DNA from: Watersipora subatra | Taxonomy: Eukaryota > Bryozoa > Gymnolaemata > Cheilostomatida > Watersiporidae | NCBI RefSeq assembly: GCF_963576615.1 | Contig: NC_088717.1 | Location: forward strand, 22,595,344 to 22,659,343 | Direction of reading: 5' to 3' | DNA length: 64,000 nucleotides | Part shown: in pieces, positions 8,706 through 64,000 of the stretch | Position numbering within the stretch: the stretch's first letter is position 1 | Layout: each line of letters begins with the position of its first letter | The notes under the pieces: generated by a model | What the model saw: only the letters and a program-made list of their open reading frames with translations | What the model was told of the DNA's origin: nothing | Database searches by the model: none | Position numbers and translations under genes: made by a program

Positions 8706-8894
8706 AAAAAATGGTTAAGTGGCGGTCAAATATTGGTGACGTTCAATTAAATACTGGTGTTCAAATAAAGGTTTTACGGTATATATATATGCAGACACTG
8801 CCTTTGACTCATGTCCAAAGGCGACTAGTCTATTACAATGTGATCTGTCCTTCTCTTGTCTCCTTATTGCTACTACCTTGTTGTATCACCTTGA

Positions 8895-28418: not shown

Positions 28419-28447
28419 CACCTGCACCAAAATGGAAAAGTCCTATA

Positions 28448-28785: not shown

Positions 28786-28981
28786 CTACCTTGTTTGCTA
28801 CGATAATACCTTGCATGTGATGGCTCTGGCATAGTACATGTATCTGTGTGCTTCAAAGCAATCGTTGGTAGCCGTGACGGATTATTTCAGTCATGCAAAT
28901 ATGCATTGTCACCTATAACAGCAAAAATAAACTGCATACAGATGATATGTTAACCGTATATATATACACACACACACCGAT

Positions 28982-29026
<45 letters not shown>

Positions 29027-29109
29027 CAATCTAATAAAGATAAACAAAGATTGCTCATATATATATTATATATATATGAGCAATCTTTATTGGGGTAATC
29101 AATAGTCAT

Positions 29110-29777: not shown

Positions 29778-29932
29778 ATCAGTATATTTAAACGTACATA
29801 TACAAATTAATGTCTAAGGGATAAAAATTCAAAGATAGCACATAAGTATAATTAAAGTATTAATCATACATATACAAATTAATGTCTAAGAGATAAAACT
29901 GCTTCTTGCTATAAAATAAACTAAACACATAC

Positions 29933-30155
29933 CTCGAACAAAGTGTGTTGATCAAACGTGTGTTCTATCCCATCTATCCTCTGATGTGATATCTCTTCGA
30001 CGGATTGCTGCCTTCCAAAGTCGCCTTCGATCTTCCGATATTTTCTTTGTTTCTTTTCCTTAATGCAGAATAACTTTTGGCACCTTAAAATATCGAAGAT
30101 GACTTTCTCTGTTGTTGCAGTTGGAGCAAACAAAGACGCTGCAAATTGCTGGCAT
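29933..30155 (-). pseudogene. THAP-domain exon, two in-frame stops (copy 2)
   Basis: Starts MPAICSVFVCSNCNNRES and otherwise matches 6329-6551, including the TAA after VILH and the TGA at the third zinc-ligand position, and the same donor. Shared stops mean the exon was already dead, or reads in another way, before duplication. Confidence 0.75.
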
Positions 30156-30204
30156 TTTAACTTTAAAATTAATTGCAGAAGCTTCGCATTTTCAACGGTA
30201 CAAG

Positions 30205-30275
30205 TTGTCTATAAAGATGGCGGACTGCGCTAATTCACAGTCCCGCGCTCACGGAATGACGTCACAAAAAAACAA
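30205..30275 (-). promoter_or_regulatory. CRE- and YY1-like promoter sites of the THAP gene
   Basis: The plus strand reads aagatggcgg (YY1-like) about 60 bases upstream of the THAP ATG, followed by gaatgacgtcac, which holds the CRE/ATF palindrome tgacgtca. This pairing is common near transcription starts in animals. Copy 1 has the CRE intact near 6653-6660 but a mutated YY1-like site. Function is inferred only. Confidence 0.4.
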
Positions 30276-30641
30276 AGGATTTTTTGAGAACCTTCCTCTA
30301 CGGTATAAATAACGCTGTATGAATGTTTATTTCCATTCATGTGCACAATACATGACTAAACGACTTTCTCCAGATTTTTTTTACAAGTAATAGCCGGCTA
30401 ACAGTCTTCTGCATTGCATCAGTGACAATTAATCATTGTGATGGACTGGATTGACAGTTTTCCATATTGCAACAGCATTCAATGCAACAGTAAGCATAAT
30501 ATTGAATAAGTAGGTGAATGGGGAATCCTTATATTGCACCAACAGTCACAGTGCCCAAGTAAGCATAATCTTCAATAAGCGGTTGAGTGGGCAATCTTCT
30601 CTATTGCACCTGCAATGACCTCATTCCTGACTGTGTAGTTA

Positions 30642-30999
30642 AGCCGGGTTCCCATATACGTCGCAAAGCACCGGCGACACATCACAGGCTATTAGCGATG
30701 AAATGGGAAGGTGTGCGCCGAGGATCGCCGGTAGTTGCCGGCGGCATCGCAATAGTTTAGCGCTGTTCAAATTTCGCAAACTGCCACAGGCAAAACCTTC
30801 CCGAAATGCACTGCACGGGTAAAGGTCACCATTATAAGAATGGCCTGGCGAGCGAACATTTTATTTGATTACGCAATTATGTTTACGATATTATTAACGA
30901 TGTGGCTTTTATGTGAACATTAAACTGCGCCGAGCACCGCAAGTGTTTTGCTGCGCGATATTACAGCCGGTGCTTTGCTACGTATATGGGAACCAGGCT
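30642..30999. mobile_element. PIF/Harbinger-like MITE (copy 2)
   Basis: Same element as 7040-7407 with TTA at 30639-30641 and 31000-31002; about 10 bases shorter through loss of one gccgagga unit. Confidence 0.8.
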
Positions 31000-31247
31000 T
31001 TATGGTTATATTGCACCAATACTCCAAATTCTTGCCAAAAGACATGGTTTTCAAATTGCACCATCTGAGCAGCTGTGGCATCCCTGGTCATTTCTGTTTG
31101 TCAAACGCCAAAAGCTGCGATATTTTTCAACAAATGATCAGAGATCAGACAACTCCAAATTAACCTGCTAACCTAAATCCACTTAAATTCTTATTCCATC
31201 TTTATACTTTCTTGGTTGAGGGTAAGAACTATAAGTATATATTTCCA

Positions 31248-32370
31248 AAGAGGTGGAACGAGACACGAGACGTCTCGAGTATCGACCTGTCTCGTCTCGG
31301 TCTCGTCTCGACTTAACTATTGCCAAACTCGAGACAGGAAATAGAACTAAAGCGCCTGCGCACGGTTGTTAAAACATGGCTTCTTGCGGTAGCAACAACT
31401 CCATATATTGTAATGGATTGCGGGCAACTGCCTTTAAAGTTATACCCGGTCCGTTACTACTTGTTGCTATTGATTATGTTGGCCACTGAGTCTAATCATG
31501 TAGTCCGGACAACGGCCCTGTTATATTTTAGTTCGGTTCTGTGTCCTTAAAACAGATACCGGGTCGTATCTAATTACTCTTCGGATAATCCAATTTAATA
31601 AATAAGACTTGCGGTTAAAATGTCTATATTTTATCGTATCGTGTTTAAACACGAACTGTCCTTCATAAAATCCGGGCCTCTTTTACGTATGTACTACCAA
31701 TCGCCGGTAAAACTTGCCCGGACACGGAGAAACGAACGAAAGGCCTTGTCGATCATAGTCCGTGTTCGGTTAACAATGACGTTTTGTTAGGTCAATATAA
31801 GAATATATATGTGCATGTATAAAGTAATTAATATAATTTCATGAGTAAAGTTTAAATATAATTCACATACTACAGTTAATACACAAACAACACGTAACAT
31901 TAATGAAACGATAAGAATAAAAGTGTTTTCGTGTGTTCTTTTAGTTGCGGTATTTCTTTGTAGAGCGACGGCTATCGGTTTCATTACATTGAAAAGTAAA
32001 ACCTATTCAATAGATGGTAAAAATATACATGTACAAAGCAATATGTTTATAATAATTATGATCAATCAAGCTCAAAATTCTTAGAATATATAACTTCGGT
32101 ATTTTAGAGCTGTTTGTGTCACTTTTGTTTACAAAAACTACATGCATATCACTATTAAAATGTTGTATTTAAATCGTTTACACCAGGTGAAAATTCAATT
32201 TAAAAATAGTTTTATTAATTTTATATATACCAAGTAGCTAGTACTTGTGTAGTGAAATCATCACTAAATGCTCATTATTTTACTGTCTCGTGTCTCGAGT
32301 CTCGAATTTTTACAAGACAGTGTCTCGAGTCTCGTCTCGAACTTAAAAAACCTGTCTCGTTCCACCTCTA
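31248..32370. mobile_element. Non-autonomous hAT-like element, copy 2 only
   Basis: 1123-bp insertion flanked by the 8-bp duplication tatttcca (31240-31247 and 32371-32378). TIRs read agaggtggaacgagaca at the left and its reverse complement at the right, with many subterminal gtctcgagtctcg motifs. Copy 1 retains the empty site with a single tatttcca at 7648-7655. An 8-bp duplication and short TIRs fit hAT. No transposase is encoded; the frame at 31320-31550 is not conserved with anything I recognise. Confidence 0.9.
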
Positions 32371-33608
32371 TATTTCCATGTTCTTAATATAAACATGGGG
32401 TTGTGGGATAACCTCTCAAAATTTCTTCTTGCGAGAAGATTTCTATAAGAGATAGCAGCCATAATTACCCAAGTAATAGATAGATTCAACTCGATACCTT
32501 GATCACCTCAATCATCATGGTAGTTTGGTAGCAGCAATCACTAGTAGCCATAACTAAACCCTGATCTAAGTGATTTAAGGTATCACCTCTTAAATTATAG
32601 GTTCTCCTATTTGATAAGATCATGGTATTTCCCTAGTCTCATTGTTCGAGTGATGGATAGGATAATGAAATACTTCTAATTACAGTCATAATAAAACTAT
32701 GAATAAGTTTCATGAGAATAATACATAATATATACAGTAAAACTTATTGTACATGCACATACTGTAAAGCCTCTATTTAAACACCTTGTCACTGTATTTT
32801 TAACCCTTTGCCTATTGTAACACTTTGTTAGAGGTGACGTGTCACTAAAAGGTATTCTTGGCTGACTCATCAGAATTTTGCGAAAATGAACTTAATCCTT
32901 TTATGTGCTAGGGGGTGCTAATGCCACTTATATTTTGTGCTCTTCTTTGGATGGAGCCACAGTAATGTCGTCGGCCTCAGCAGTTTTTTAAAAATCTTAT
33001 TTCATATTTGTTAAAGTATCAGAACAAGGAGCTAGTTTGAGTAAAAATATTAATTGAATACAGTTATTAATTAATTTGATGGTGTTTCTTTCAAAGTATT
33101 AAAGAGGAAACTAAAGCAGGTTCCTAAAAAGTACATTTATCATTTATTAAAACACTTTAAAGTTTTTAAGTCTGATGGTAAACCACATTTTGAATGACCT
33201 TGAAGACAACGTATCGTACTTATATCTTAGTGATTTTGGATAAGAGTGTGGTTCGGACGATTGTGACAATCGATCTTAGCAGGTACACAGTCACTGAAAT
33301 AATGACAACAACTACAGCAAAAATAAAATAATTAATTGTTATTGATGTAGTCGAGTCATTATTAACACCATTTCGTAGCCATTTTTCCACCGACCCTTTT
33401 CTACTTGCTAACATTAAAAAATGGTTAAGTGGCGGTCAAATATTGGTGACAGTCAATTAAATACTGGTGTTCAAATAAAGGTTTTACGGTACATATACGT
33501 ATATGCAGACACTGCCTTTGACTCATGTCCAAAGGCGACTAGTCTATTACAATGTGATCTGTCCTTCTCTTGTCTTCTTATTGCTACTACCTTGTTGTAT
33601 CACCTTGA

Positions 33609-45545: not shown

Positions 45546-45812
45546 ATCATGTATCAGTATCATGGAGTAAACCTAGAAAGGAAAATGAACATTGAGCAAT
45601 AGACATTAAGCTTCTTTAAAACAACTTACAATATTCAATTACTCAGCTTTCACGCTGTCCTGTGCTTCTCACCCTCGTGTCTAAAGATGATGTTTAAGGT
45701 AGATGAAAGGTTGAATGACAAAAATGTCACAGCTTTATCAAACATATATCATACATAATATATCATATAATTTTCGGTACACACATATAATCAGGCCAGT
45801 AAGTACATGTCC

Positions 45813-45992
45813 TGTTGTATAATCGAGCTGGTGGGCCGCGGGCTGCGCTAATGTCCAAGGTCACGGTAGTTACAGGTAGTTACGAGAGGTTACGGGAAGA
45901 TACGAGAAGTCAGGGAGTATATAGGCATTGGGAGATGCGAACGGAGTTCTTCTTTGCTTCAACCACATGTGAGTACGCACATTTATACAACA
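45813..45992 (+). repeat. 5' LTR of the short gypsy-type element
   Basis: Begins tgttgtataatcgagctggt and ends acatttatacaaca. Contains gggagtatatagg as a TATA-like site near 45917. Pairs with 49078-49254 with a few substitutions and a 3-base gap. Confidence 0.9.
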
Positions 45993-46274
45993 TGGCACAG
46001 TTGACAAAATTCTGATTTTTTTTCTTTGTGGGTTAACGTTAGCGATAATTTTTCTGGTTACGGGGTTAAGTTTAAACGGTTGATTAGACCCTTTCACGGG
46101 TGTGCAGGCAAGGTGACGTGAGGTAGGGTGGTGTTGTGAGGTGTTGTGGCAGTGAAGTAGCGGTGTTGTTGAGGTGTAAATATTTATTACATATTCGGAG
46201 GTGGGAATTACACTAATTTCATACGAGTGGGGTAGAGTGAATTTGTGGCGAGAGAGATATTGTGTTGGGTAGAG

Positions 46275-49020: not shown

Positions 49021-49077
49021 TGAATGAGTTCAAATGTATTTCTGGAAGGTGGCCGCATACAAAAAAGAAAAATGGCA

Positions 49078-49254
49078 TGTTGTATAATCGAGCTGGTGGG
49101 CCGCGGGCTACGCTAATGTCGAAGGTCATGGTAGTTACAGGTAGTTACGAGAGGTTACGAGAAGGTACAAGAAGTCAGGGAGTATATAGGTGTCAGGAGA
49201 TGCGGACGGAGTTCTTTGCTTCAACCACATGTGAGTACGCACATTTATACAACA
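49078..49254 (+). repeat. 3' LTR of the short gypsy-type element
   Basis: Matches 45813-45992 and is preceded by the purine-rich tract at about 49058-49077. Confidence 0.9.
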
Positions 49255-49361
49255 TGTACAAGCAGTATGATTGCAGGCCCAAGGCTGTTGTATGGAAATA
49301 CTTCGAAAACAAGATACCAGCAGGGAATGTAGCCAGACCGCCGTACATGCATCTATTTTGT
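49255..49361 (+). other. Spacer between the two LTR elements, possible BED-finger scrap
   Basis: Open plus-strand piece reading KAVVWKYFENKIPAGNVA, which resembles the first half of a BED zinc finger of hAT-type proteins, but the paired Cys are not seen. It may be a fragment of an older element into which the LTR elements inserted. Confidence 0.25.
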
Positions 49362-50150
49362 ACAAGCATCAAGACACCTAAGAGACATCAAAAGATTCCC
49401 TAATTGGAAATGTCAGAATTAGTATACATCAATCTTAGAAACTGATGAGTCAACACCGTCAACACCCCCTGTGGGAACCGCCAAGGAATTTGGGAGTAAT
49501 TATATCTATCCACCCATCACCAAGCACTACCAAAAATAACTGAACTTACCCTCACCCTAAGCCAGTATTTTTCTATGACATATTGCAGTGCCAACGGAAA
49601 CAATATTATGTAATCCTAGCATCCAGCCACAGTTTCGGCGCTCTCCATGGGACGTATCCAAAGACGGTGTTCCTTCCAATGGACTTACTCCTACAACATA
49701 GTATATGATACGAACATTATATATACCGTCCTCAGGCTATCCTAAATGCCTATAAAAGCTAGCGTTTTTAGTAGCTCAGCCTCTTTGGCAGTGACACTTA
49801 CAGACGTGTAAGACTGAGCTTTAAGGGCAGACACAAGCTTGCTGTTGGCATAAGAGATTTATATCTTACTTAGTTTTACTACTTGTCATCTATCTTATAT
49901 TTTAGATTTTTGCTACTTGTGTATTGGGTTTTGGTTCATAAGAATAAAGTATAATTGACTATCATAATCCACCTTTAACATTCAATATATCTAGGCTTGC
50001 ACAAAGATCAGGGTCAAGTTATTAGCAACCATTACCTAAACATAATCAATCACATTAGCATAGTTTAGATTGAAGTGGAACTTGTAGTCATTAATCATTG
50101 ATGTTATTGTGCTGTCAAGTAAGTCAAATACTTCGATAACACATATAACA
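49362..50150 (+). repeat. 5' LTR of the 13.7-kb element
   Basis: 789 bp shared with 62308-63096. A TATA box (tataaaag, 49751-49758) and AATAAA (49943-49948) fit U3-R-U5 organisation. It ends acacatataaca. The shared region starts acaagcatc rather than TG, so the outer edge may be eroded or atypical. Confidence 0.92.
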
Positions 50151-50175: not shown

Positions 50176-50611
50176 CACCAACCTTTCGCATGGCTAAGTG
50201 GGTATTCCCCGAACGCTTCAAACCTTTCATAACACTTTCATAATATTTCGTAGCGCTTACCATAGATCTAACATCTCCATCTTTATTCATATCTGGTTGC
50301 TTGACTATCTAGAATATTTTATTTTTGGTCACTATATTCTACTGGGCAGGTAGATAATTAACGTATCTATTGTGGGACTAATTACAAAGTCCATGTTAGC
50401 TGAGGCTTGGTGACTAATCTAGGTATATCTTTTAGTCAAAGCATAACCTTTCGTAACACCTTCGTTATACTTGCGCAGCGCTTAGCTACAGCCTATATTG
50501 GGATTGATCACCCACTTGCATACTAATTATGGGCTTGAGGATCCTAATCTATTTTAAGAAAATCTGAGGTCAGATTTACATTTGCCTAGGAGAAAACAAC
50601 TAATTCCTAAT

Positions 50612-51012
50612 TTCTGACTGTTTCGGTTTGCAGGGAAATTACACATAAACAATTTCATAGCCGCGTGCCTTCACTTTATATTGCCATAGTGTCCATAATT
50701 TCTGACTGTTTCGGTTTGCAGGGAAATTATAATTACATAGCCGCGTGCCTTTCATAATTTCTGACTGTTTCGGTTTGCAGGGAAATTATAGCCGCGTGCC
50801 TATAACTTCTGACTGTTTCGGTTTGCAGGGAAGTTATACATACATAGTTCACAGCTGAGCACTGTTATCACTATACTATATGCTTTCTGACTGTTTCGCT
50901 CCAGGGCAAACTTAGATCAGAACTTGATACACGTACAAATTCACAAATTTCTTAGGACACTCACTACCTTGATCTACCTTTCTGACTGTTTCGGTTTGCA
51001 AGGAAAGCATAG
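50612..51012 (+). repeat. Six-copy repeat array in the retroelement leader
   Basis: Core ttctgactgtttcggtttgc plus agggaa occurs at 50612, 50699, 50759, 50807 and, diverged, at 50884 and 50979. A second motif, atagccgcgtgcct, follows three of them (near 50658, 50738, 50788). An array in the untranslated leader recalls the Su(Hw) insulator array of Drosophila gypsy, but the motif differs. It may bind a host factor, or act in RNA packaging. Confidence 0.9.
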
Positions 51013-51805
51013 ATCTATTTATACATTGGCAACTTCTTATGTACGTGCAATTCTGCAGATTCATCCAGTCACACGCTCACACTCATTCTATTAGTGACTG
51101 TAGATACACGGAGCTCTAGAATATTACACCTAACATTTACATACGTATAAGGCCTAATAATAATAATACACCGGTTATAAAACAAGTTACATCAGCTTGA
51201 CTCATAGACAAGCACACTAATATAGGAAGCTTAAACTCGAGTATATATATACTTCATACAGATATTAATATAGTTTACAAACTATACCTAGCTTCCCAAC
51301 CTATTCCTGGACAATACTAAAAAACTGCTAGTCTATAACAGCAATCATCTACGTTCATATGCTAATTGCACTAATCCTGTATATATTATTACGCTGTTTA
51401 CTGATATATAAACGTTACAGACTCATACTTGCGGTTGAACTCCAACCATTTGGAAAACAACCATCTCTATATAGAATAACTTTCTCGTTGACAGACATAA
51501 TAGACTACCTAGTCTTTGTCACTTACTCGCTACTCGTCTTAACATAATTACAATTAAAAAAAAAAATTCTGTCAACTATATACATATAACAGTGCCTATA
51601 TATATATACTTTAGAGCACGTTACTCTTAGGTTGCATGTTAACTAAGTTTGTTATAGCAGACCAGAACCTACACAGCCTAGTCACACACCCAGGAGCCAA
51701 ACCAGCAGTGACAAGAGAATACCCGAAAGGAGCAGCCAAAGCCGGCATTGAGCTACTCCCATAAACCGGATAGACTGACCCAAGGCGCAACAGCCAGACT
51801 ACGAG

Positions 51806-53320
51806 ATGGTAAAAAAGAGAGTTAAGAAAACACCTTCTGTGGTAAGGAGAGCACTGAGAAACCGAATCATCATTGAGGACCAGAGTCCACGTGGTGAACA
51901 ACTCAGCCCGGAAGATGTCGAAGCCCAGGAACAAAGCCCAAAAGGTGGAAAACCAACCGTGGACGACTCCGGAAGCTACACAGGACCTGGTGTAGCACCG
52001 AGAACATCAAATGGAGATCTACTTTTCCCACCCCGGACGGGACCACCCATCATCAGCGTAGTGCTGAACGTCGATAACATAGAGCCATTCAAGGAAGGAG
52101 ATAACTTCGAAGATTACCTAGATTGATGGGAAATACTGATGGCTCAATACAACTACGACAACAGACGACTAGCACAAGCCCTACCTGCTAAACGTGTTGG
52201 ACCAGCGTGGGAGACCTACAGAAATGTTATAAAGCTGAACCCTAATTGCCCGAGGAGCTACAGCTCCTTAAAGAAGGAATTGATATCGGCTTTCCGAGTC
52301 GACCAACCACTCCGAGAGAGGAACCTATGGAACATCAGCCAAGGGAAGAAGTCGATCAACGACTTCTACTCTGAGATGGTGGTTGCAGGCCGATCAGTTT
52401 TTAAAGATTTACCAGAGGTAAACCGTGATCAAGTTATAAAATCCGCATTCATTGGAGGCCTGAAGGAGAGCTATCAGAGATCGATTCTGAGGCATGAGAA
52501 TATTACTTTACAAAAAGCTCTAAAAGAAGCCAGAAACCTGGAAGCTATAGATAAAGCAGTGACAAGAAACAAGACGATGAGTGTTAATCAAGTAGACACT
52601 GACCCCCTCGCACCATTGACACGACAAGTACAAGGACTGACCATGCTAGTGAACGATCAAGCAAGAAGAATAAAAGAAAACGAAACAAGATTTCCAAGAA
52701 GAGAGGCGACATCGAAAAACTACAGAGGTAGAAGAGGTTATTCGACTTCAAGGAACAATTATGATGACCGCCAACGTTATCAACAACAACATGGAACGAA
52801 CTCGTACAACAGAAACTATAACCAAAGGAGAAGGGATGACAAAGTCTCACCACGAAGAGACAGATATTCTCCACCTCGAGGACCAAGACAACAAGGAACA
52901 CAGAATGAATACCGCTCGAGAGAACCACAATACAGACGCTACAATTCACAAACTAGAGATGACAGCTCACGAAGAAACCAAGAATATGGAAGGCCAAGAA
53001 GTACTAATACACAGGCTTACTGTAGAAATTGGAGTAGGACTCACGAATTCGGAAGATGTCCTACAAGATATCACGCCGCAGAAGTATCAAACTCTTCTCC
53101 AAAATCCGACGACGACTTATCAACACGAGAATTCGTACACAATTTTTTGACAACTAATCGAGATGGCGCTGTCTCACAAAACGCGAGACGACCCCGAGAA
53201 GACAACCCTTCATCTGAAACGGTCAACTGTATAGAAACTACTAAAATTTTACGTTCGGAAAACGTAGACCGACGACCTAAACGCAGGAGATTTACCGGAG
53301 GACGGCTAGGCTTATTTAAC
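51806..53320 (+). CDS. Gag of the 13.7-kb element, with one in-frame UGA
   Basis: Starts MVKKRVKKTPSVVRR at 51806 and stays in one frame, except for TGA 52124-52126 inside what should be the start of the capsid domain (FEDYLD before it, WEILMAQYNYD after). Capsid-type segments follow (GPAWETYRNVIKLNP, SINDFYSEMV, IKSAFIGGLKESYQ), then a basic Arg/Tyr/Gln-rich region and a knuckle-like YCRNWSRTHEFGRC in which the second Cys is Trp. Gag would form the particle. The frame runs on without a stop into env at 53321. The UGA is either decay or a recoding site. Confidence 0.75.
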
Positions 53321-55297
53321 ATGGCCAGCTACTTCCAATTCAGCCTCTTATGCTTAGCCTTATGCGTTACCGGGACGACAGCATCCAAAGGACAACCAAA
53401 CAACCCCATGATTTGCGGCACAGGAGAAAACGGTTCTCCACAAACATTTCGAGTAAAACAAGAATACGAATGCTCAACGGACACCAGCAAACAATCAGAC
53501 ATGGCACCTCAGAAAGTTAACGTTACTATCTACAAGAAGAATATGATCAAACAAAAGACTATCGCCTACCAATGCACGAAGTTCACCACACACGTTACGA
53601 CACAAATTTCGTTTTTCAGAGACATTAAGACCAAGACAACCTCAAGCAGCACCCAGAAAGTAACATTAGAAGAATGCACCGACATGGTAATACATAAGAA
53701 GTGCCAAGCAGGAGTTTTACATGGAGGAGATGGAATGTATATTACGAACAAACCAACCAATGCTATGTATGTATGGTGCTGCCAACAGAAAACCTTCAGC
53801 GCGAAGCAATGCAGTTACGTGGAGACCTACTTGTACAAGAAACACGGATCGGATGAATTCGAAAGCACAGCCGGAGACGTCAGTCACTGCAATTACAACG
53901 ACGGACATTGCGAATTAAATGACGGATCGATGCTCATGTGGGACCTGGACATAGTTGAAACATGTGAATACACACCATGGTTCAACGAATCAGGAGAATT
54001 TCTCGACGCACACTTTGTCTCTAAGAAACGAGATCTAGCTCTAACATTTTATAATTCAGGACTGAACTCGCAAATGGACTGCAACAACTCTAACGTTTCG
54101 CTTTCGGACCAAGGCCTTGTGGTAAAATTTCTTACACCCCTAACGAATGTTACTCTCAACGACACGATAAAAGAAAGAGTATCAGTAGAAGGTCGAGACG
54201 CTGCCCTCTTCAATACAATGTTACAATCACTTGCGTACCAGCAAACTAAGATAGCTCAAGATCTATTCTGGTCAGCTTACTTCTACACCTGCCACAACCT
54301 AGCAGAGACCCTACAGATAATTACCATGCTATTGGGAGAGCACCCAACACTCAGTGCAAGATATTTACTGGACAAACCAAACGTTATTGCTACAGCAGGT
54401 CCTGGTTTCCTTCAAATTTACCATTGTACCATACTTAACTACAGTCAATACGAAGTACTGCCAATGGAAGAGAATAATTGCACAGAGTTTATTCCGATGA
54501 AGATCAAAATAGCTGGCACAGAAAAGATTGGATATTTTAATCCAAAAGACAATGTGATACACCCAGACACCTATACAGTCAATTGCAGGACAAAAAGAGG
54601 CACATTGATGATGCTGGAAGGTAACATTTCTGAGTATTTCCCAAACGGAACGATTTCATCAATGAGGGAGACCACCAACTTGAGTATTCCGGACATCAAC
54701 CTCGGCAGCCAGCCTCTACAAATACAAGAAACCATATTTAGCAGAGCTCACGTGTTAGGATGGTCAAACACAGACAATTACGGAGGACTGAATGAACTCC
54801 TATCTACCTTAGACAGACAGAAAAGAGTACTAAAGGCTATGGGAATCGTCACGAACCGCCATAACACCCTACATTACAACACCATAGAGAGCAGAGAGAA
54901 ACTGTTTGGCTCATCACTATTCAGCTTTCTATTCGGAGGACACGTAGCCTCAGGTTACGAGCTATGGACGTTCGCTTGTAACATCATTCTTACATTAATG
55001 GTTTTATCTACAGTCATCGGAGGAATCACAAAAGGATGTTTTATATACCGAGCAAGAAAGAGAGCCATGGTAAATGCTTTAGACGTAGAGACGGCACTCG
55101 AAATAATCGATATGCCAGAAAGAGAAGACGAATCCGAAACAGAATCTGACATCAACCCATCCGCACCACCAGAGAGTTCAGAGATCGACTCATCATCAGA
55201 AGACTTAAGCAGTGCACCACCATCATATAAACCTTACGTACCCCGATATTCTCGACCCGAAGTTACTAATGAAGAACGTGAATGTTTGAGAGCATGA
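53321..55297 (+). CDS. Envelope-type glycoprotein fused in frame to Gag, upstream of pol
   Basis: From the internal Met at 53321 there is a signal peptide (MASYFQFSLLCLALCVTG), then an ectodomain of about 540 residues with many Cys and N-glycosylation sequons (NVT, NES, NVS, NDT, NYS, NCT, NIS, NGT). A furin-like RQKR lies at about 54815-54826, an SFLFGG segment before the membrane span (from ELWTFACNIILTLMVLS, near 54959), and a tail of about 85 residues with PSAP and PPSY, both ESCRT/Nedd4-type late-domain motifs. I cannot place the family; the Cys-rich layout is compatible with a captured viral fusion glycoprotein. It probably needs a spliced mRNA, or processing of a Gag-Env polyprotein. 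Ends at TGA 55295-55297. Confidence 0.72.
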   Translation: MASYFQFSLLCLALCVTGTTASKGQPNNPMICGTGENGSPQTFRVKQEYECSTDTSKQSDMAPQKVNVTIYKKNMIKQKTIAYQCTKFTTHVTTQISFFRDIKTKTTSSSTQKVTLEECTDMVIHKKCQAGVLHGGDGMYITNKPTNAMYVWCCQQKTFSAKQCSYVETYLYKKHGSDEFESTAGDVSHCNYNDGHCELNDGSMLMWDLDIVETCEYTPWFNESGEFLDAHFVSKKRDLALTFYNSGLNSQMDCNNSNVSLSDQGLVVKFLTPLTNVTLNDTIKERVSVEGRDAALFNTMLQSLAYQQTKIAQDLFWSAYFYTCHNLAETLQIITMLLGEHPTLSARYLLDKPNVIATAGPGFLQIYHCTILNYSQYEVLPMEENNCTEFIPMKIKIAGTEKIGYFNPKDNVIHPDTYTVNCRTKRGTLMMLEGNISEYFPNGTISSMRETTNLSIPDINLGSQPLQIQETIFSRAHVLGWSNTDNYGGLNELLSTLDRQKRVLKAMGIVTNRHNTLHYNTIESREKLFGSSLFSFLFGGHVASGYELWTFACNIILTLMVLSTVIGGITKGCFIYRARKRAMVNALDVETALEIIDMPEREDESETESDINPSAPPESSEIDSSSEDLSSAPPSYKPYVPRYSRPEVTNEERECLRA

Positions 55298-56893
55298 GAA
55301 GAATACTTTTCACAGACATACGGTATGCAAGGTCCACAGAGACAACACGAGCAGATCAACGGTGTCACTAGCGCTTCAAGAGAAGATTGTAGAAGAACCA
55401 CCATAGATGTAAAGATCAACGGATTTATTTGCACATCACTCGCTGACGCAGGAGCCACAATAAGCCTGATCAACACAAGGCTCGCTCACGAATTGCGTCT
55501 ACACTTGCAAACAAGCGACCTGACAGCTACGGGTGTAACCAAAGACACTCTGAAAATCCTCGGACGATCAACAGTGATTTTGAACATCGGAGGCGAATGG
55601 AATGAAAAACATCGATTTTACATAGCAGATGGCATCTCACATGAGGTAATTCTAGGAACAGACTTAATGAGCAAACTTGGCGCAGTTACTTACAATTTCG
55701 ACAGATGTACTCTTCACATCAATGATGGACCAGCCATCGCCATGGGAAAGAATTGCTCCACCAGCTCAGCATACGTCTGCAACAATGTCCAAGTAGCACC
55801 ATTTACAGAAGTGGCAATCGTAGCAAATGTAGATAGCGACTACGAAGGAAAAGAATGCTTATTTGAAGGAAACACTGACACTCTGAAAAGACTGATGATT
55901 GGCAGATCAGCCACCCGAGTTGACCAAGGTAAGATAATAATCCCTATTATCAACCCAACCAGCACACCTTTTGAGTTGAAGAAAGACACCATGGTTGGAA
56001 GCATAGAAAGCTTAGATGAGGACTTACGATTGCTCAGTGTGCCGACAACTCCTGCAGAACTGGAGAAGCTCCGCTCATCTCCGAGTGACCAGCTGGATAT
56101 CTTGAAGATGAATTTAACGGAACAGCAGTTCAACGAGTTGAGAGAGCTCGTGGACGAGTTCACAGACATCGCAGGAGAAGGGATCACCGAGCTTGGGCGA
56201 ACATCAATAGTAGAGCATGTCGTAGAAACACTGCCAGGTACCATGCCGATACGGAGCAAGCCATATAACATACCAGTAGGAGTGCGAGCTGAAATCAAAC
56301 AACAAATTGATCAGATGCAAGAAAAGGATCTCATTACCCCTAGCACAGGCAAGTGGACGTCACCAGTTGTTTTAGTACGAAAAAAGGATGGCAACTGGAG
56401 ATTTTGTGTAGACTACCGCAAACTCAATGCAGCCACGGTGAAACAGTCCATGGCCATTTCTTCAATCAACAGCGCAATAGAGATCATGCATGGGAAATTT
56501 TTTTTTAGCTCGATAGATTTGTGTTCAGGATTCTTTCAAGTTTCTCTACACAAAGACTCAAGGGAAAAATCAGGTTTCATCACCCCATTCGGATGCTATG
56601 AGTTTAATACCATGCCACAAGGGATGTCAGGCAGCCCAGCTACTTTTACAAAACTAGCATTGGCCATCATGGCGGACCTGATTAGCGAAGGCAGCAGCTG
56701 TGTCTATCTAGATGACTGGCTGATGACATCAAGGACTTTTGAGGAACACATCCATCTACTGAGAACCGGCTTCACCCGTGTTCGCTTCGCCGGACTGAAG
56801 TATAGACCATCTAAGAGCCAACTCTGCCAAAGAGAAATTTTGTATCTAGAACACATCATATCAGAAGAAGGTATAGCAGTCGCAGATAGATAA
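55298..56893 (+). CDS. Pol part 1: protease and reverse transcriptase
   Basis: Same frame as gag-env, beginning right after its UGA; the first ATG is 55325, and an acceptor-like tacttttcacag ends at 55315. Protease motif reads LADAGATIS, that is DAG instead of D-S/T-G. RT shows WTSPVVLVRKKDG, FCVDYRKLNAATVKQ, SSIDLCSGFFQV, MPQGMSGSPATF and catalytic VYLDDW (residue about 461). TAA 56891-56893 ends the frame shortly after EREILYLEHIISEEG-type sequence, where a small deletion has shifted the frame relative to the rest of Pol. The RT core residues are intact, but the protein is truncated. Confidence 0.85.
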   Translation, partial: EEYFSQTYGMQGPQRQHEQINGVTSASREDCRRTTIDVKINGFICTSLADAGATISLINTRLAHELRLHLQTSDLTATGVTKDTLKILGRSTVILNIGGEWNEKHRFYIADGISHEVILGTDLMSKLGAVTYNFDRCTLHINDGPAIAMGKNCSTSSAYVCNNVQVAPFTEVAIVANVDSDYEGKECLFEGNTDTLKRLMIGRSATRVDQGKIIIPIINPTSTPFELKKDTMVGSIESLDEDLRLLSVPTTPAELEKLRSSPSDQLDILKMNLTEQQFNELRELVDEFTDIAGEGITELGRTSIVEHVVETLPGTMPIRSKPYNIPVGVRAEIKQQIDQMQEKDLITPSTGKWTSPVVLVRKKDGNWRFCVDYRKLNAATVKQSMAISSINSAIEIMHGKFFFSSIDLCSGFFQVSLHKDSREKSGFITPFGCYEFNTMPQGMSGSPATFTKLALAIMADLISEGSSCVYLDDWLMTSRTFEEHIHLLRTGFTRVRFAGLKYRPSKSQLCQREILYLEHIISEEGIAVADR

Positions 56894-56894
56894 A

Positions 56895-59231
56895 TTCCCC
56901 ACACCTAGGAATAAGACGGAAGCTAAAAGACTGCTAGGACTATTCGGATACTACAGGACATTTATAAAAGGATTTTCAAAAATTGCTGCACCCATCACAC
57001 AGCTAACAAGTAAAGACAAAGAGTTCGAATGGAGTCCAGAATGCGAAGAGGCAATGCAAATTTTAAAGTCACGCATCACCACCGCCCCTATACTTAGTTT
57101 CCCGAACTTTGATGAGACATTTATTCTAACTACAGATGCATCATCTACCAACATCGGGGCAGTACTGTCTCAAAAGCAGGCTGATGGAAAAGAACACCCG
57201 ATATCTTTCTACTACAGAACATTGACCAAAGGCGAGAAGAAATGGGACTCGTGCGAGCAAGAGCTATTCGCCATAGTAACTGCAGTTAAATACTACAGAG
57301 CTTACCTGATGAACGTACCTTTTAAGATCTTCACAGACAATGCGGCATGCACCTACATCCTGAAGAAGCCCGAGTTATCTCCACGCTTAGCCAGATGGGC
57401 TATCCAACTCTCAGATTACACCTTTGAAGTAGAACACAAGATAGGCAGTCAGAATAAAGTGGCAGACGCTTTATCAAGAGCAGTCACAACCATTAACACG
57501 GATTCACCGTCTTCAGCGATAGATGTTGACATGAGAGAAGATCAGAAGAAGGATTTCTTTCTGGGACCCATTTGGAGGTATCTCGCAAAGTCTAAATTTC
57601 CACAAGATACAGGAAAAGCAAGAAGAAGAGAAATAGTTACAGACAGTGAAAATTTTGTGCTGAAAAGAGAAGTTTTATACCGAAAACAGGATGAGAAATT
57701 ACTACTTGCCATACCTGCAGTGCAGCGGCCACTTCTACTCTACGCGATCCACGACAGCTTGACAGCGATGCACCCAGGAGTGACGAAAACCTTGCTGAAG
57801 CTCAAGGAGAAATATTGGTTCCCAGCTATGTCACGAGAAGTGGAAGACTACATCCGACACTGTATCTCCTGTCAACAAAGGAAAAGCCCGCACGCACCGA
57901 CACGAGTACCACTTGGCACCCAGATGGCTAAAGCACCATTTGAAGTCCTATCTGTCGACTTTCAAGGACCGCTAACAGAGAGCTCATGTGGAATGAAGCA
58001 CATACTCGTTTTCACAGATCACTTCACAAAATGGGCAGAGATTATACCAACTAAAGACCAACTAGCTACAACAGTTGCTAAAGTGTATGCAGAACAGATA
58101 TTCTGCAGATATGGAGCTTCAAAGATTCTATTGAGCGACCGTGCTAAAAACTTCATGAGCGAAATGATCGCAGAAACTAACAGACTTCTAGGAGTGGAAC
58201 ACAGATTCACCAGCCCTTACAGACCACAGACAAACGGACAAGTCGAGATTTACAACAAATCAATAGCTAACATGCTATCACACTTCGTAAACCTAAGCGA
58301 CCATAAGGACTGGCCTCGATACATACCATTCTGCCAACTCGCACACAACTCATCCAAGCACACTATTCTACAAGCCTCACCCAGCTCACTGCTAATGTGC
58401 AGAGAAATGAGACTACCCTACGATTTGACAAAACCATCACCAGAGCCAATTGAAGCGGACGACAGCACATACAAGTCAAAATTACACGAGAGAATGACAG
58501 CAGTTTGGGAAAAAGCTAGAGAGCTAATGGAAAGGGGAAAAGCCAGACAGAAAAGCTACTGCGATCAAAAGGCTACACCCAGTTCACTACAAGTAGGAGA
58601 TTATGTCTTCTACTATGACAAAAGGGGTTATAAGAAAAAGACGTCGAAACTGATCAAGAGATGGAAAAATGCCTACGTTATTAAGAGCAGGACCGAGACT
58701 AACGCAGCCATTCAGCCATTCGATCGCCCAGACCAACCAGCAATTACAGTACACCTCAACATGCTTAAGCCACACTTTGGACCACTAATTAGAGGGGAAC
58801 ACACAGACATCACTCTCGAATTAAACTCACCAAAAGGAACAGATAGTGAACAAGACGAAACAGGACAAGATAAAACTGAGGTACAGGATAAGACCACTCC
58901 ATATGAAGACAACGAACGACTTGATTCAGACTTACCAAAAGATATGATGATGGAAGAAGACATGAAACTACCAGCGAGCACGGGAGTACGTTTCCAGCTT
59001 CCAGAAGAAATAATAAATCCTTACGGAGAAGACCAGTACGATGACTTATCTGAAACAGAAAATCAACCATTGATGACAGAAAGTAATCAAAAATCAGATG
59101 GCGAATATGAACCTCAAACACAATTCATGAAAGCAACAACAGAACATAGCCAGGCCCCATCACCTAGCTATGAACAAGAACGAAAGAAAGAGCTCATGGA
59201 CTCCGAAGAAGCCCGAAGCCCAAGCGGATAG
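56895..59231 (+). CDS. Pol part 2: RT connection, RNase H and integrase
   Basis: Open in another frame from about 56895 (KFPTPRNKTEAKRLLGLFGY), with first ATG 57054. RNase H: LTTDASSTNIGAVLSQ, EQELFAIV, IFTDNAACTY, KVADALSRA. Integrase: zinc-binding HD...MHPG with CISC, then the DDE triad in LSVDFQGPL, ILLSDRAKNF and NGQVEIYNKS (D about 302, D about 362, E about 397 from 57054), then a long acidic Asp/Glu/Gln-rich tail. All catalytic residues are visible. In an intact element it would be one polyprotein with 55298-56893. Confidence 0.85.
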   Translation, partial: FPTPRNKTEAKRLLGLFGYYRTFIKGFSKIAAPITQLTSKDKEFEWSPECEEAMQILKSRITTAPILSFPNFDETFILTTDASSTNIGAVLSQKQADGKEHPISFYYRTLTKGEKKWDSCEQELFAIVTAVKYYRAYLMNVPFKIFTDNAACTYILKKPELSPRLARWAIQLSDYTFEVEHKIGSQNKVADALSRAVTTINTDSPSSAIDVDMREDQKKDFFLGPIWRYLAKSKFPQDTGKARRREIVTDSENFVLKREVLYRKQDEKLLLAIPAVQRPLLLYAIHDSLTAMHPGVTKTLLKLKEKYWFPAMSREVEDYIRHCISCQQRKSPHAPTRVPLGTQMAKAPFEVLSVDFQGPLTESSCGMKHILVFTDHFTKWAEIIPTKDQLATTVAKVYAEQIFCRYGASKILLSDRAKNFMSEMIAETNRLLGVEHRFTSPYRPQTNGQVEIYNKSIANMLSHFVNLSDHKDWPRYIPFCQLAHNSSKHTILQASPSSLLMCREMRLPYDLTKPSPEPIEADDSTYKSKLHERMTAVWEKARELMERGKARQKSYCDQKATPSSLQVGDYVFYYDKRGYKKKTSKLIKRWKNAYVIKSRTETNAAIQPFDRPDQPAITVHLNMLKPHFGPLIRGEHTDITLELNSPKGTDSEQDETGQDKTEVQDKTTPYEDNERLDSDLPKDMMMEEDMKLPASTGVRFQLPEEIINPYGEDQYDDLSETENQPLMTESNQKSDGEYEPQTQFMKATTEHSQAPSPSYEQERKKELMDSEEARSPSG

Positions 59232-59361: not shown

Positions 59362-59367
59362 TTTATT
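59362..59367 (-). terminator. Possible polyadenylation signal of AS2
   Basis: AATAAA on the minus strand about 180 bases beyond the AS2 stop, in an A/T-rich stretch, so weaker evidence than for AS1. Confidence 0.35.
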
Positions 59368-59544
59368 TTTTTCGTTTATAACAACAGACAACAATAACAA
59401 CAATAACAATCACCGCCACACCCCGCAAACAGAGAGGCACCACGAGCCTGGGATCTAAAAGAAGACAATAACCACTACACGCTCGAGACAACTATTTAAA
59501 AAAAAAAAGAAGAACAATTTTTTTTGTACCTCAGTTTCATTCAA

Positions 59545-60106
59545 TTAAGACAAGTTTAACAACCTACCGACGACCACTGGAAGATCAGACGTGACATCTG
59601 CTCCCATTATAAGGCGAGAAAGCCACGCCGAGGATTGGCGTAAGGCCGGATCAGTTGAAATTTCAGGCACTACAAGGAACCAATAGTGGAAAGAAGCATT
59701 AGCACTGACATCAGGCACGACGGAATAAGAAAACGGACGAAAATAACAAAAAAAAAAAAGAAGTTCCCACTTACAAGCAGTCGGGACAGTGATACGCGCT
59801 AGGATGGTGCCCACCCCAGCCATAATCGTACCCCAAGCATCCTTGCTAGTAATATCCACAGCGGGTGCACCGGTCGTCAAGCTTATACAGGCGCTGACCT
59901 TGCCGAAACAAGTGCACCTAGTAAGGTCACATGGCTAAAAGGAAAAGATTCAACCCAAAAATTGTCCACAGGCACGAACTACTATCATCTAGTAATCACT
60001 CATACGCATATGATTAAAGAAATAAACTTACCGCTTCTGTGATGGGATAAGGCCAAACCAACGGCCAAAGTATAATCAAGAAAAACACAACCCTGTGGCT
60101 GTACAT
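59545..60106 (-). CDS. Antisense gene AS2: secreted-type protein, three exons
   Basis: Minus-strand model: exon 1 60106-60032 (25 codons, phase 0, donor gaagcg|gtaagt), exon 2 59934-59775 (acceptor ccttttag, donor ctgctt|gtaagt) and exon 3 59669-59545 (acceptor ccttgtag, stop TAA). Total 119 residues. Exon 1 encodes a signal peptide (MYSHRVVFFLIILWPLVW). Exon 2 starts PCDLTRCTCFGKVSAC with four Cys. Exon 3 has SSAWLSRLIMGADVTSD. Introns are 97 and 105 nt. Intron 2 is a multiple of three without stops, so retaining it gives a 154-residue isoform. CCAAT and GGGCGG sites lie upstream near 60205-60245. No family recognised. It lies wholly inside the retroelement. Confidence 0.6.
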
Positions 60107-60555: not shown

Positions 60556-60561
60556 TTTATT
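60556..60561 (-). terminator. Polyadenylation signal of AS1
   Basis: AATAAA on the minus strand, about 60 bases after the AS1 stop codon. Confidence 0.5.
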
Positions 60562-60621: not shown

Positions 60622-61316
60622 TTACACCCCGTTAGCACACTCACACCAGAGATCTCGGTGGGTAAAATTACCGCAATCGGTACAAAACCGAGCCCCGTGG
60701 ACGCACCGCCTATAGCCTCTCCGTACCCAGGCCAGACATTGCGGCCCACACTCTGTCGAGTTTGTTGACCCCACCGCCTCCGCCTCCTCCTCCTCCTCCT
60801 CCAAACTTTCCTCCCCTGCTGGGAGCCCTCGCGGAGCTTGTAGCCTATAATGAAAACATGGAACTTCTGCATGACCACTGATTCAGATACGGAGGATGAC
60901 AAGATGATACAGATATACATAAACACGCCACGAAGACCCACCTAGCTTGTTCCTCCAAGTGGCGGAGGAGCCTTCCTCCCCGCCCCGAGACACTCCTCAT
61001 CATCCGGAATGACACCCCCCTCCTAGCCATCGGCACAACCCGCTGCACAGGCCTAAACAGCCCTGATGAGGTGGCCTCCGTCTGTGTGCTGGCATCCGAG
61101 GTGGAACGCCTTCGAGCACCAGGGAATTCCCTCTCGGTTATCTCACTGAGTCTACCCATATAGAACCCGATCCATACATGATTGGTGAGTACCTTGACAT
61201 AATAACATTGTACCACTTTAATCTAAAAGTTGCTCGCTTATTCTCTAACCAACTTACCTCCTCACGAATGCTAATAACTCAGCTATTACAGCGTCAATAA
61301 ACGTTCTGCTTGCCAT
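60622..61316 (-). CDS. Antisense gene AS1: cysteine-cluster protein, three exons
   Basis: Minus-strand model: exon 1 61316-61258 (MASRTFIDAVIAELLAF, donor ggag|gtaagt), exon 2 61151-60942 (acceptor atgggtag, donor gctag|gtgggt) and exon 3 60844-60622 (acceptor cattatag, stop TAA). Exons of 59, 210 and 223 nt join with phases 2 and 2, giving 163 residues. Exon 2 carries LSEITEREFPGARRRSTSD and STQTE; exon 3 has a Glu run and a C-terminal cluster of eight Cys/His-type positions (CGPQC, FCTDCGNFTH, WCEC). Introns are 106 and 97 nt. A TATA box lies 36 bases upstream and AATAAA 60 bases downstream of the stop. No family recognised; a zinc-binding regulator is an inference. Confidence 0.65.
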
Positions 61317-61351: not shown

Positions 61352-61359
61352 TATTTATA
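61352..61359 (-). promoter_or_regulatory. TATA box of antisense gene AS1
   Basis: The minus strand reads ggtataaatacag, placing a transcription start about 30 bases on, near 61328, just before the ATG at 61316. Confidence 0.6.
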
Positions 61360-62307: not shown

Positions 62308-63096
62308 ACAAGCATCAAGACACCTAAGAGACATCAAAAGATTCCCTAATTGGAAATGTCAGAATTAGAATACATCAATCTTAGAAACTGATGAGTCAAC
62401 ACCGTCAACGCCCCCTGTGGGAACCGCCAAGGAATTTGGGAGTAATTATATCTATCCACCCATCACCAAGCACTACCAAAAATAACTGAACTTACCCTCA
62501 CCCTAAGCCAGTATTTTTCCATGACATATTGCGGTGCAAACGGAAACAATATTATGTAATCCTAGCATCCAGCCACAGTTTCGGCGCTCTCCATGTGACG
62601 TATCCAAAGACGGTGTTCCTTCCAATGGACTTACTCCTACAACATAGTATATGATACGAACATTATATATACCGTCCTCAGGCTATCCTAAATGCCTATA
62701 AAAACTAGCGTTTTTAGTAGCTCAGCCTCTTTGGCAGTGACATTTACAGACGTGTAAGACTGAGCTTTAAGGGCAGACACAAGCTTGCTGTTGGCGTAAG
62801 AGATTTATATCTTACTTAGTTTTACTACTTGTCATCTATCTTATATTTTAGAATTTTGCTACTTGTGTATTGGGTTTTGGTTCATAAGAATAAAGTATAA
62901 TTGACTATCATAATCCACCTTTAACATTCAACATAGCTAGGCTTGCACAAAGATCAGGGTCAAGTTATTAGCAACCATTACCTAAACATAATAAATCACA
63001 TTAGCATAGTTTAGATTGAAGTGGAACTTGTAGTCATTAATCATTGATGTTATTGTGCTGTCAAGTAAGTCAAATACTTCGATAACACATATAACA
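62308..63096 (+). repeat. 3' LTR of the 13.7-kb element
   Basis: Same length as the 5' LTR. TATA near 62697 and AATAAA at 62889-62894. The sequence just upstream (aaccacaacttcccacaact) is not purine-rich, so a classical polypurine tract is missing at this boundary. Confidence 0.92.
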
Positions 63097-63109: not shown

Positions 63110-63755
63110 ATTTTCTTCTTGAAACATATATTGATGTGACTATATTAAGACGACTCTTGCTGAGGTTACTGAGACATTAGAAACAAACAGAAATAAATTC
63201 AATGAGATGAATAACCAACATCAGACTCTTGAAAAGTCGTATGCAGATGTTGCAAAAGCTTTGGAGCAAAATAGTCTTAAAGTTCAAGAGAATTTTGCAA
63301 GGCAGGCTAGTTCCTTGGTAGCCCAGTTGGAGGATAAAGAAAAGCAAGACAAAGACTCTGAATTTAGAGCCAAGAACCTGATCCTTTTTGGAATAGAAGA
63401 GAGTGACAATAGAGAGGAATGGGCACAGCAAGTAGACAAAATCATTAAAGATTGCCATATTGACATGAAAGTAGAAAAAAATAACAACTATAGGTTAGGT
63501 AGGTACGATGCTTCAAAGCACAAAGAGCGACCTCGCCCTCTTAGAATATCCACCAGGTCTGAAAATCAAATGTTTGAGTTGTTGAGCAGGATTAATGGCA
63601 TGAAGCTGTCAGGTATTTTTGCTAGAAAAGATCTTTCTAAAAAAGAACAAGAAGAGGATTTTCGGCTTCGAAAGGAGTTGAAAGAAACGAGGGAGGCAGA
63701 CCCAGATTCTGCGTACAAAATCAAAAAAGGGAAAATAATAAAAGTGAACAAGTAA
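63110..63755 (+). CDS. LINE ORF1 protein, C-terminal part
   Basis: Open from about 63126, first internal ATG 63207. Residues at the start are coiled-coil-like (TLEKSYADVAKALEQNSLK), followed by RAKNLILFGIEESDN and RPLRISTRSENQMFELLSR, the RRM-like region of LINE ORF1 proteins. Ends TAA 63753-63755. The 5' part is missing at the LTR junction. Confidence 0.7.
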
Positions 63756-64000
63756 TAACATCGATTAAAATCTTGCTGCTCAATGCTAGATCTGTCAGAG
63801 GCAAACTGAATGATATCCAAGTTCTGTCTTCGGAATATGATATATTGTGCATAACCGAAACCCATCTTGATCCATCATTTAATAATGAAATGATTCTGAG
63901 CTCTTCTCAAAAAATTATATACAGACATGATCGAGATTGTCATGGTGGTGGTGTTTTGTTAGCTTTGACAGCCAGTTTGCCTCAAGAACAAGTCTTTTTC
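63756..64000 (+). CDS. LINE ORF2 start, endonuclease domain (runs off window)
   Basis: Frame overlapping the end of ORF1 reads SIKILLLNARSVRGKLNDI, then DILCITETHLDPSF and GGGVLLALTASL, the N-terminal motifs of LINE AP-endonuclease, with the catalytic N and E (ITETH). It continues past the window edge. Clade cannot be set without RT. Confidence 0.75.

What the first reader, a model, noticed from the sequence alone, without database searches (positions are those of the whole stretch)
60622..61316. Spliced antisense gene with its own promoter inside a retrovirus-like element (AS1)
Three exons on the strand opposite gag-env-pol join with exact phase through two GT-AG introns (106 and 97 nt), with a TATA box 36 bases upstream of the ATG and AATAAA about 60 bases after the stop. 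The 163-residue product ends in a dense Cys cluster. The best-known analogue is HBZ, the spliced antisense gene of HTLV-1; internal antisense genes are also known in some plant LTR elements. For an animal gypsy-type element with env I know of none.
Basis: partly seen in the sequence, partly recalled or inferred. Interest (0 to 1): 0.9.

Follow-up and report, generated by a model that had tools for sequence, protein, structure and literature searches.

The report
Alternatively spliced antisense gene in retroelement
A virus-like jumping element in a bryozoan (moss animal) carries a small gene read backwards relative to its other genes, with its own start signal and introns and two alternative cysteine-rich endings that evolution has preserved across many copies.

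Summary
Confirmed and extended. The window is from the bryozoan Watersipora subatra. Between pol and 3' LTR of an env-bearing Ty3/gypsy-type element lies a minus-strand gene: TATA, ATG at 61316, three exons joined by 106- and 97-nt GT-AG introns, a 163-residue product with a seven-Cys tail, AATAAA 60 nt after the stop. Twenty of 24 further loci were fetched at first. TATA is in 19 of 21 copies; 12 of 20 read to the conserved stop by canonical sites, 9 in frame throughout. The Cys tail has pooled pN/pS 0.14 (12 chosen open copies). A second isoform was missed: a GT at 60726 removes that tail and joins exons 4-6 (59934-59478), giving another Cys module, recognisable in 19 of 21 copies (pN/pS 0.20); NCBI protein P0002 follows this route. 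All 21 listed pol loci of at least 65% identity have the gene or remnants alongside; 0 of 5 more distant ones examined do. No RNA reads were available. The role is inferred: a self-encoded regulator of element RNA or transcription, perhaps dimerised by LC8. Antisense accessory genes are known elsewhere, so this is a new variant.

The parts
49362..50150 (+). 5' LTR
   Evidence: 98.35% identical to 62308-63096 over 789 nt, no gaps; 13 differences, K2P 0.0167
62308..63096 (+). 3' LTR
   Evidence: no target-site duplication recognised by eye
51779..55297 (+). gag and, in the same frame, env (frame interrupted by an in-frame TGA at 52124-52126)
   Evidence: ORFs 51779-52126 and 52127-55297; Retrotrans_gag E 1.6e-6; env part matches 13 database proteins, of 5 scanned 2 carry the Monjiviricetes fusion glycoprotein model; the window's own env does not match it at E 1
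55298..59231 (+). pol in two overlapping frames: protease-RT (55298-56893), RNase H-integrase (56877-59231)
61352..61359 (-). TATA box (TATAAATA) of the antisense gene
   Evidence: starts 43 nt before the ATG; G[GA]TATAAATA present in 19 of 21 copies
61258..61316 (-). antisense exon 1 (ATG, amphipathic helix)
   Evidence: same first exon in P0002; ATG in 19 of 20 copies
61152..61257 (-). intron 1, 106 nt, GTAAGT..AG
   Evidence: 105-106 nt in 17 of 20 copies
60942..61151 (-). antisense exon 2 (TQT motif DASTQTE, basic helix RGGRLLRHLEEQAR)
60845..60941 (-). intron 2, 97 nt, GTGGGT..AG
60727..60844 (-). antisense exon 3a (acidic stretch and first Cys pair CGPQC), shared by both isoforms
60622..60726 (-). 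exon 3b: Cys tail and stop of the short isoform (163 aa); removed as intron in the long isoform
   Evidence: 12 of 21 copies used, pooled pN 0.103, pS 0.740; L010's tail is also open, L017's and L021's readable with Cys lost
60556..60561 (-). AATAAA of the short isoform
   Evidence: AATAAA or ATTAAA within 200 nt of the stop in 10 of 12 copies, 13.7% in shuffles
59775..59934 (-). antisense exon 4, alternative Cys module PCDLTRCTCFGKVSAC (long isoform)
   Evidence: matches P0002; phase-0 junction behind a T-rich AG acceptor; recognisable in 19 of 21 copies
59568..59669 (-). antisense exon 5 (long isoform)
   Evidence: matches P0002 in phase
59475..59491 (-). probable antisense exon 6, end of the long isoform with stop
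   Evidence: T-rich acceptor; short tail resembling P0002's; weakest exon call
59362..59367 (-). AATAAA after the probable last exon, 131 nt short of the pol stop

Best explanation
The feature is a real accessory gene of this retroelement family, read from an internal TATA promoter against gag-env-pol. One pre-mRNA gives two proteins with a common N-terminal part (amphipathic helix, TQT motif, basic helix, acidic stretch, first Cys pair). If the third donor is ignored and the first poly(A) signal used, the 163-residue protein ends in a Cys/His tail. If it is used, that tail is removed and exons 4-6 supply a different Cys module (about 221 aa). Shown: position, orientation, frame, splice signals, conservation, selection. 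Inferred: that both RNAs are made; that the Cys modules bind zinc and nucleic acid; that LC8 dimerises the protein; and that it acts in trans in the nucleus on the element's own transcription or RNA export, its own promoter letting it be expressed when the LTR is off. The confidence given is for the gene and its two isoforms; for the regulatory role I would say about 0.4.
For: P0002, an NCBI protein from another copy, uses the same exon junctions; 134 of 214 aligned residues identical. Against it the long product shows no stop and no frame loss; in simulated neutral decay to that identity the chance of no stop was 0.019, and of no frameshift at most 0.005 under assumed indel rates. 21 copies: TATA in 19; pol oppositely oriented downstream in 15, 3' LTR upstream in 16, at least one of the two in 19. 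Pooled pN/pS: exon 1 0.26 (16 copies), exon 2 0.47 (15), exon 3a 0.43 (12), exon 3b 0.14 (12), exon 4 module 0.20 (19). In those chosen copies stops per frame in exon 3 are 0 in the antisense frame and 7 to 25 in the other five; in exon 2, 0 and 27 to 43. 21 of 21 listed pol loci with at least 65% identity have the gene or remnants alongside. Two deep relatives (L034, L040) keep the Cys/His spacing though most other residues differ.
Against: No RNA reads were available, so transcription, isoforms and translation are unproven. Eight of 20 copies do not read to the conserved stop by canonical sites and three more do so with an out-of-frame stretch. The second NCBI model (P0001, the L012 copy) starts from a different first exon and has a frameshifted Cys tail. 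The exon 3 set was chosen as open with the Cys pattern: L010, L017 and L021, readable but with altered junction or lost Cys, were left out; pairs are not independent; L022, L028 (exon 2) and L011 (exon 3a) carry out-of-frame stretches inside the sets. Donor 3 being GT in 12 of 12 is not independent, because GT also begins an invariant Val codon. No known domain passes its cut-off and both structure models are of low confidence, so zinc binding and role are inference. Exon 6 rests on one acceptor and a weak resemblance.
Confidence: 0.85

Rival explanations
1. Chance: free choice of GT-AG sites produced a long spliced ORF in non-coding element sequence.
For: 163 aa or more reached in 4 of 150 shuffles and in 3 of 82 other window stretches.
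Against: Frame, TATA, splice sites and both Cys modules are conserved across diverged copies, pN/pS 0.14 to 0.47; the antisense frame alone is free of stops in the compared copies (copies partly chosen for this).
Confidence: 0.02
2. The conserved thing is the antisense RNA, not a protein: a convergent non-coding transcript that silences the sense transcript or feeds dsRNA or piRNA pathways.
For: About 2 kb of the antisense gene lies opposite the 3' part of the sense transcript; a plant review raises this possibility for antisense ORFs (PMC7264820, passages).
Against: Selection is codon-phased and strongest on the Cys modules; synonymous sites are near saturation while protein is kept. Does not exclude an RNA effect in addition.
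Confidence: 0.05
3. A host gene, or a nested unrelated transposon or virus, was inserted once and merely travels with the element.
For: Protein searches gave only two W. subatra proteins and one from an unnamed contig; five more distant pol relatives examined lack it, so it was gained in, or lost outside, this clade.
Against: Beside 21 of 21 listed pol loci of 65% identity or more; same side and orientation wherever pol or LTR was found in the first set; no long terminal inverted repeats around it. Selection over deep divergence suggests the element uses it, whatever its origin.
Confidence: 0.1
4. Counter-silencing protein: the TQT motif captures LC8 away from a Panoramix-like piRNA silencing complex, so the gene protects the element from co-transcriptional silencing.
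For: TQTE in the window product and in 3 of 3 database relatives; the wider motif [DS]xx[TVI]Q[TV][DE] occurs in 169 of 50,000 shuffles of the protein, the core alone in 1,262. TQTE is encoded in the exon 2 stretch of 17 of 20 copies in some frame, L022's out of frame. In Drosophila LC8 dimerises Panoramix through TQT motifs and is needed for transposon silencing (PMC7861614, abstract and passages).
Against: LC8 binds over 100 proteins (PMC10046861, abstract start in a listing); the K at -3 of the motif in PMC3078936 (abstract start in a listing) is absent; L018, L023 and L027 lack TQTE. Panoramix is described there for Drosophila; no bryozoan counterpart was sought.
Confidence: 0.1

Closest known systems
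Antisense additional ORFs of plant Ty3/gypsy elements (maize Grande gene23, Retand TRP28 ORFs, RIRE2)
   Same: Between pol and 3' LTR, opposite to gag-pol; Grande's has its own promoter and a nuclear product (PMC7264820, PMC11963269: passages and a cited title).
   Different: No TRP28 or other shared domain found; here multi-exon with two conserved alternative C-termini, in an env-bearing animal element. The word 'intron' does not occur in the main text of either paper.
HBZ of HTLV-1 (and APH-2 of HTLV-2)
   Same: Spliced antisense gene near the 3' end of a retroelement with alternative isoforms.
   Different: HBZ starts in the 3' LTR and has a bZIP (bZIP recalled); here the TATA is 949 nt outside the LTR and the C-terminus is a Cys module.
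MchSLE-1 antisense RNA of the mussel Steamer-like element
   Same: Antisense transcript with an ORF in an animal gypsy-type element (PMC10974842).
   Different: 67-codon single ORF under the 3' LTR; no splicing of it or conservation shown in what I read; gag and pro-pol only.
CERV of C. elegans Cer1
   Same: Spliced accessory protein of an animal Ty3/gypsy element with a Cys-rich loop needed for genomic RNA export (PMC10309623, passages): the best functional precedent I found.
   Different: CERV is on the sense strand, shares exons with gag, 517 aa; sequence relation not tested.

Membership tests
HBZ-type retroviral antisense gene | antisense to gag-pol-env, 3' part of the element | tested here: met
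HBZ-type retroviral antisense gene | promoter in the 3' LTR | tested here: not met
   TATA at 61359, LTR starts at 62308; sequence signal only, no start site mapped
HBZ-type retroviral antisense gene | bZIP domain | tested here: not met
   no Pfam match at cut-off for the short product, P0001-P0003 or the Cys tails
Plant antisense aORF (aORF-3R) | location between pol and 3' LTR, antisense | tested here: met
Plant antisense aORF (aORF-3R) | own promoter | tested here: inconclusive
   conserved TATA only
Plant antisense aORF (Retand TRP28) | TRP28 domain (PF04195) | tested here: not met
Cellular or viral zinc-binding domain | match to a described zinc-finger family | tested here: inconclusive
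   sub-threshold RecR_ZnF (11 of 12 tails, best E 0.0026), zf-CCHC_4 (9 of 12), IBR (8 of 12), Zn_Ribbon_1 (1 of 12); best PDB match E 0.19
LC8 client | TQT-type linear motif | tested here: met
   binding itself not testable here
Protein-coding gene under selection | dN below dS in this frame | tested here: met
   copy sets partly chosen as open
Protein-coding gene under selection | spliced transcript observed | not testable with these tools
   no reads available; Ensembl's annotation of the assembly was made mainly from transcript alignments (PMC12902671, passages), but how P0002, listed as an NCBI protein, was built is not known to me

The most novel reading that the evidence does not exclude
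An animal retroelement lineage has evolved a two-headed antisense regulator: one gene, expressed independently of the LTR, whose leaky splice site swaps one zinc module for another on a common LC8-dimerised body, switching the element between two regulatory states (for example RNA export against shielding from piRNA-guided silencing).
Probability: 0.15. Interest if true: 0.92.

Novelty: new variant of a known kind. Interest (0 to 1): 0.8.

Why it matters
Antisense genes are well known in human retroviruses and reported in plant retrotransposons, but my searches of the held open-licence library showed no report of a multi-exon, alternatively spliced, selected antisense gene in an animal Ty3/gypsy element (listings; subscription papers and bioRxiv mostly not held). 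If expressed, it shows complex-retrovirus-style regulation from the opposite strand in a third setting. Whether antisense ORFs of retroelements are functional becomes testable with a standing copy series and existing RNA data.

Tried and rejected
Pfam, PHROGs and PDB searches of the products gave no family. Scans of viral contigs with the antisense alignment and with an env alignment found no relative (records near the window's genome may be left out there). Structure models of P0002 and of exon 3 alone were low-confidence (mean pLDDT 48.7 and 53.9), so no fold search was run. The bacterial promoter scan is not informative here. A nested transposon was considered: only short, partly A/T-rich inverted repeats were found. 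Troyka elements were considered as the host family and dropped, since they encode no env (PMC12440569, parts 1-3 of 5 read). P0003 (unnamed contig) is a wrong-frame translation of a copy with a break in exon 2; its visible changes in exon 3 fall at third rather than second positions of the antisense frame (16 against 5; control stretches 4 against 7; Fisher p 0.034; first positions are mostly invisible in this test). The four changes visible in P0001's tail are shared with P0003 and are not independent. In one search a loose Cys pattern also hit L029 (low complexity) and L032 (opposite pol); neither matched the gene by tblastn.

Full report
What was checked. The coordinates were read directly. 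On the minus strand a TATAAATA begins 43 nt before an ATG at 61316. Exons 61316-61258, 61151-60942 and 60844-60622 join through GT-AG introns of 106 and 97 nt into a 163-residue frame ended by TAA at 60624-60622, with AATAAA at 60561. Taken alone this is only moderately unlikely: free choice of splice sites gave an equal or longer product in 4 of 150 dinucleotide shuffles, 1 of 150 if a TATA was required, and in 3 of 82 other stretches of the window.

The element. LTRs of 789 nt at 49362-50150 and 62308-63096 differ at 13 sites, so the insertion is fairly young. Between them are gag, an env in the same frame as gag, and pol in two overlapping frames. The env part matches 13 database proteins; of five scanned, two carry the Monjiviricetes fusion glycoprotein model, while the window's own env does not at E 1. 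The gag frame has an in-frame stop and pol is in two frames, so this copy may be damaged. No target-site duplication was recognised.

The host. A protein search with the spliced product gave three relatives, two of them NCBI proteins of Watersipora subatra. The window's assembly has 783.72 Mb and a contig of 66,545,008 bases, the scaffold N50 printed for the W. subatra assembly (PMC12902671, one section and passages). Small differences to the published assembly remain (239 against 240 sequences; 783,720,542 against 783,752,486 bp).

A second isoform. P0002 follows exons 1, 2 and the first part of exon 3 and then leaves at a GT that in the window is 60726. It continues in exons matching the window at 59934-59775 and 59669-59568, in phase and flanked by AG and GT. 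A probable last exon at 59491 gives a 221-residue product with 134 of 214 aligned positions identical to P0002.

Other copies. The genome search with P0002 gave 59 matches, which I count as 25 loci including the window. I fetched 20 of the other 24; a 21st, on C7, came later inside L036. In the first set of 21 copies (20 plus window) pol lies downstream in the opposite orientation in 15, a 3' LTR upstream in 16, at least one of the two in 19, and neither in L018 and L021. One extra 28% pol match in L017 points the other way. The TATA is in 19 of 21; L017 has other sequence there and the L024 contig begins inside the gene. Of 20 copies that hold exon 1, 19 have ATG and 20 a GT at its end; intron 1 is 105-106 nt in 17 of 20.

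Integrity. With canonical splice sites 12 of these 20 read from ATG to the conserved stop. Nine are in frame throughout: window, L009, L013, L014, L015, L016, L021, L026, L027; L021 has lost the first Cys. L011, L022 and L028 are open but contain out-of-frame stretches. L010 (no canonical second acceptor), L012, L017, L018, L019, L020, L023 and L025 do not reach the stop. This mixture is normal for a transposon family and counts against any claim that every copy is functional.

Selection. Pooled Nei-Gojobori pN and pS: exon 1 0.168 and 0.640 (16 copies), exon 2 0.277 and 0.592 (15), exon 3a 0.193 and 0.453 (12), exon 3b 0.103 and 0.740 (12). dN was below dS in 56 of 58, 93 of 93, 61 of 61 and 29 of 29 pairs with a defined dS, out of 120, 105, 66 and 66 pairs. 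Not given to the call: L011, L017, L020, L023, L024 for exons 1-2, and nine of 21 for exon 3 (L010, L012, L017-L021, L023, L024), chosen by an open tail with the Cys pattern. L019's exon 2 was dropped for a stop that lies at the start position I had set; L015 and L016 carried two codons too many there, and L025's was cut short. Pairs share ancestry. In these copies the antisense frame has no stop, partly by choice of copies; the other five frames have 27-43 stops in exon 2 and 7-25 in exon 3. The exon 4 module PCDxxxCTCFGxVSxC is recognisable behind an AG acceptor in 19 of 21 copies (not found in L023, L025), pN 0.164 and pS 0.840; L010 has a stop in it and L014, L018, L026 each lack one Cys. 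In the 12 tails 22 of 48 positions are invariant, all seven Cys among them; L021 and L017, not in that set, have each lost a Cys. Both alternative Cys modules are thus largely kept at the protein level while synonymous sites are near saturation.

Clade distribution. A pol search listed 82 matches, scored from the best candidates only. I count 21 loci with at least 65% identity. Thirteen have the gene in the first set of 21; the other eight (L034-L041) have the gene or remnants. Weakest are L035 (exon 1 with TATA only), L041 (E 0.004), L034 (E 0.005) and L040 (E 7.5e-4); L034 and L040 keep the Cys/His spacing. Of the remaining matches I examined five (L029-L033, 53-60% identity): none gave a tblastn match at E 0.5. 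The gene thus looks like a trait of one clade of this element. Integrase core identity to the window is 89-98% in 12 of 13 copies with a match (L017's is a spurious 26%), while exon 2 falls to 40-58% in 14 of 19: the middle of the antisense protein evolves fast around its Cys modules.

How it may work. The gene has its own promoter and poly(A) signals and ends before pol, so it could be on when the LTR is off. The third donor varies (GTGAGA, GTACGG, GTCCGG, GTTAGG, GTTCGG, GTCTGG; GT in 12 of 12, but GT also begins an invariant Val codon), and an early AATAAA or ATTAAA is present in 10 of 12 copies against 13.7% in shuffles; this suggests a balance between the two forms, as with suboptimal retroviral splice sites (recalled). 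The common part holds an N-terminal helix, the best-predicted piece of a poor model, and an LC8-type motif (motif from the abstract start of PMC3078936). CERV of Cer1 is a precedent for a Cys-rich accessory protein of an animal gypsy element, there needed for RNA export (PMC10309623, passages). I therefore favour a nuclear regulator of the element's own RNA or transcription; this step is inference.

Comparison and novelty. Plant antisense ORFs (PMC7264820, PMC11963269, passages) share place and orientation; HBZ shares splicing and strand; the mussel element shares an animal gypsy host (PMC10974842, passages and Discussion). None of the passages read describes alternative, selected C-terminal modules. 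Hence a new variant of a known kind.

Noticed in passing
50601-51020: Six copies of a motif like TTTCTGACTGTTTCGGTTTGCAGGGAA (some varied) in the 5' leader; it reads like a repeated branch point, pyrimidine tract and AG, that is an array of 3' splice-acceptor-like sites.
   Followed up: partly
52127-55297: gag and env lie in one open frame upstream of pol, an unusual gene order; 10 of the 13 database relatives of the env part are 1,134-1,369 aa long, and 2 of the 4 longer ones scanned have a gag model above cut-off.
   Followed up: partly
L016 (G000:C1:42683886-42690086): Mosaic antisense gene: exons 1-3 of the L015 type joined to exons 4-5 of the window type, suggesting recombination around intron 3.
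   Followed up: partly
L009, L010, L012, L015, L016, L022, L024 compared with the window: Integrase core 89-96% identical but integrase C-terminus only 59-75%, a sharp step that suggests mosaic elements.
   Followed up: no
1-8900 and 23500-33600: Segmental duplication at 95-96% identity, about 23.5 kb apart.
   Followed up: partly
45807-45994 and 49072-49256: Direct repeat pair (91-100% identical) flanking about 3 kb with very strong GC skew (0.49), next to the 5' LTR; possibly another element.
   Followed up: no
63135-64000: Overlapping ORFs right behind the 3' LTR that look like a non-LTR retrotransposon (by eye, recalled); no Pfam match at E 0.01.
   Followed up: partly
49362 and 63096: The left LTR end is not TG, no purine tract precedes the 3' LTR and no target-site duplication was seen by eye.
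   Followed up: partly
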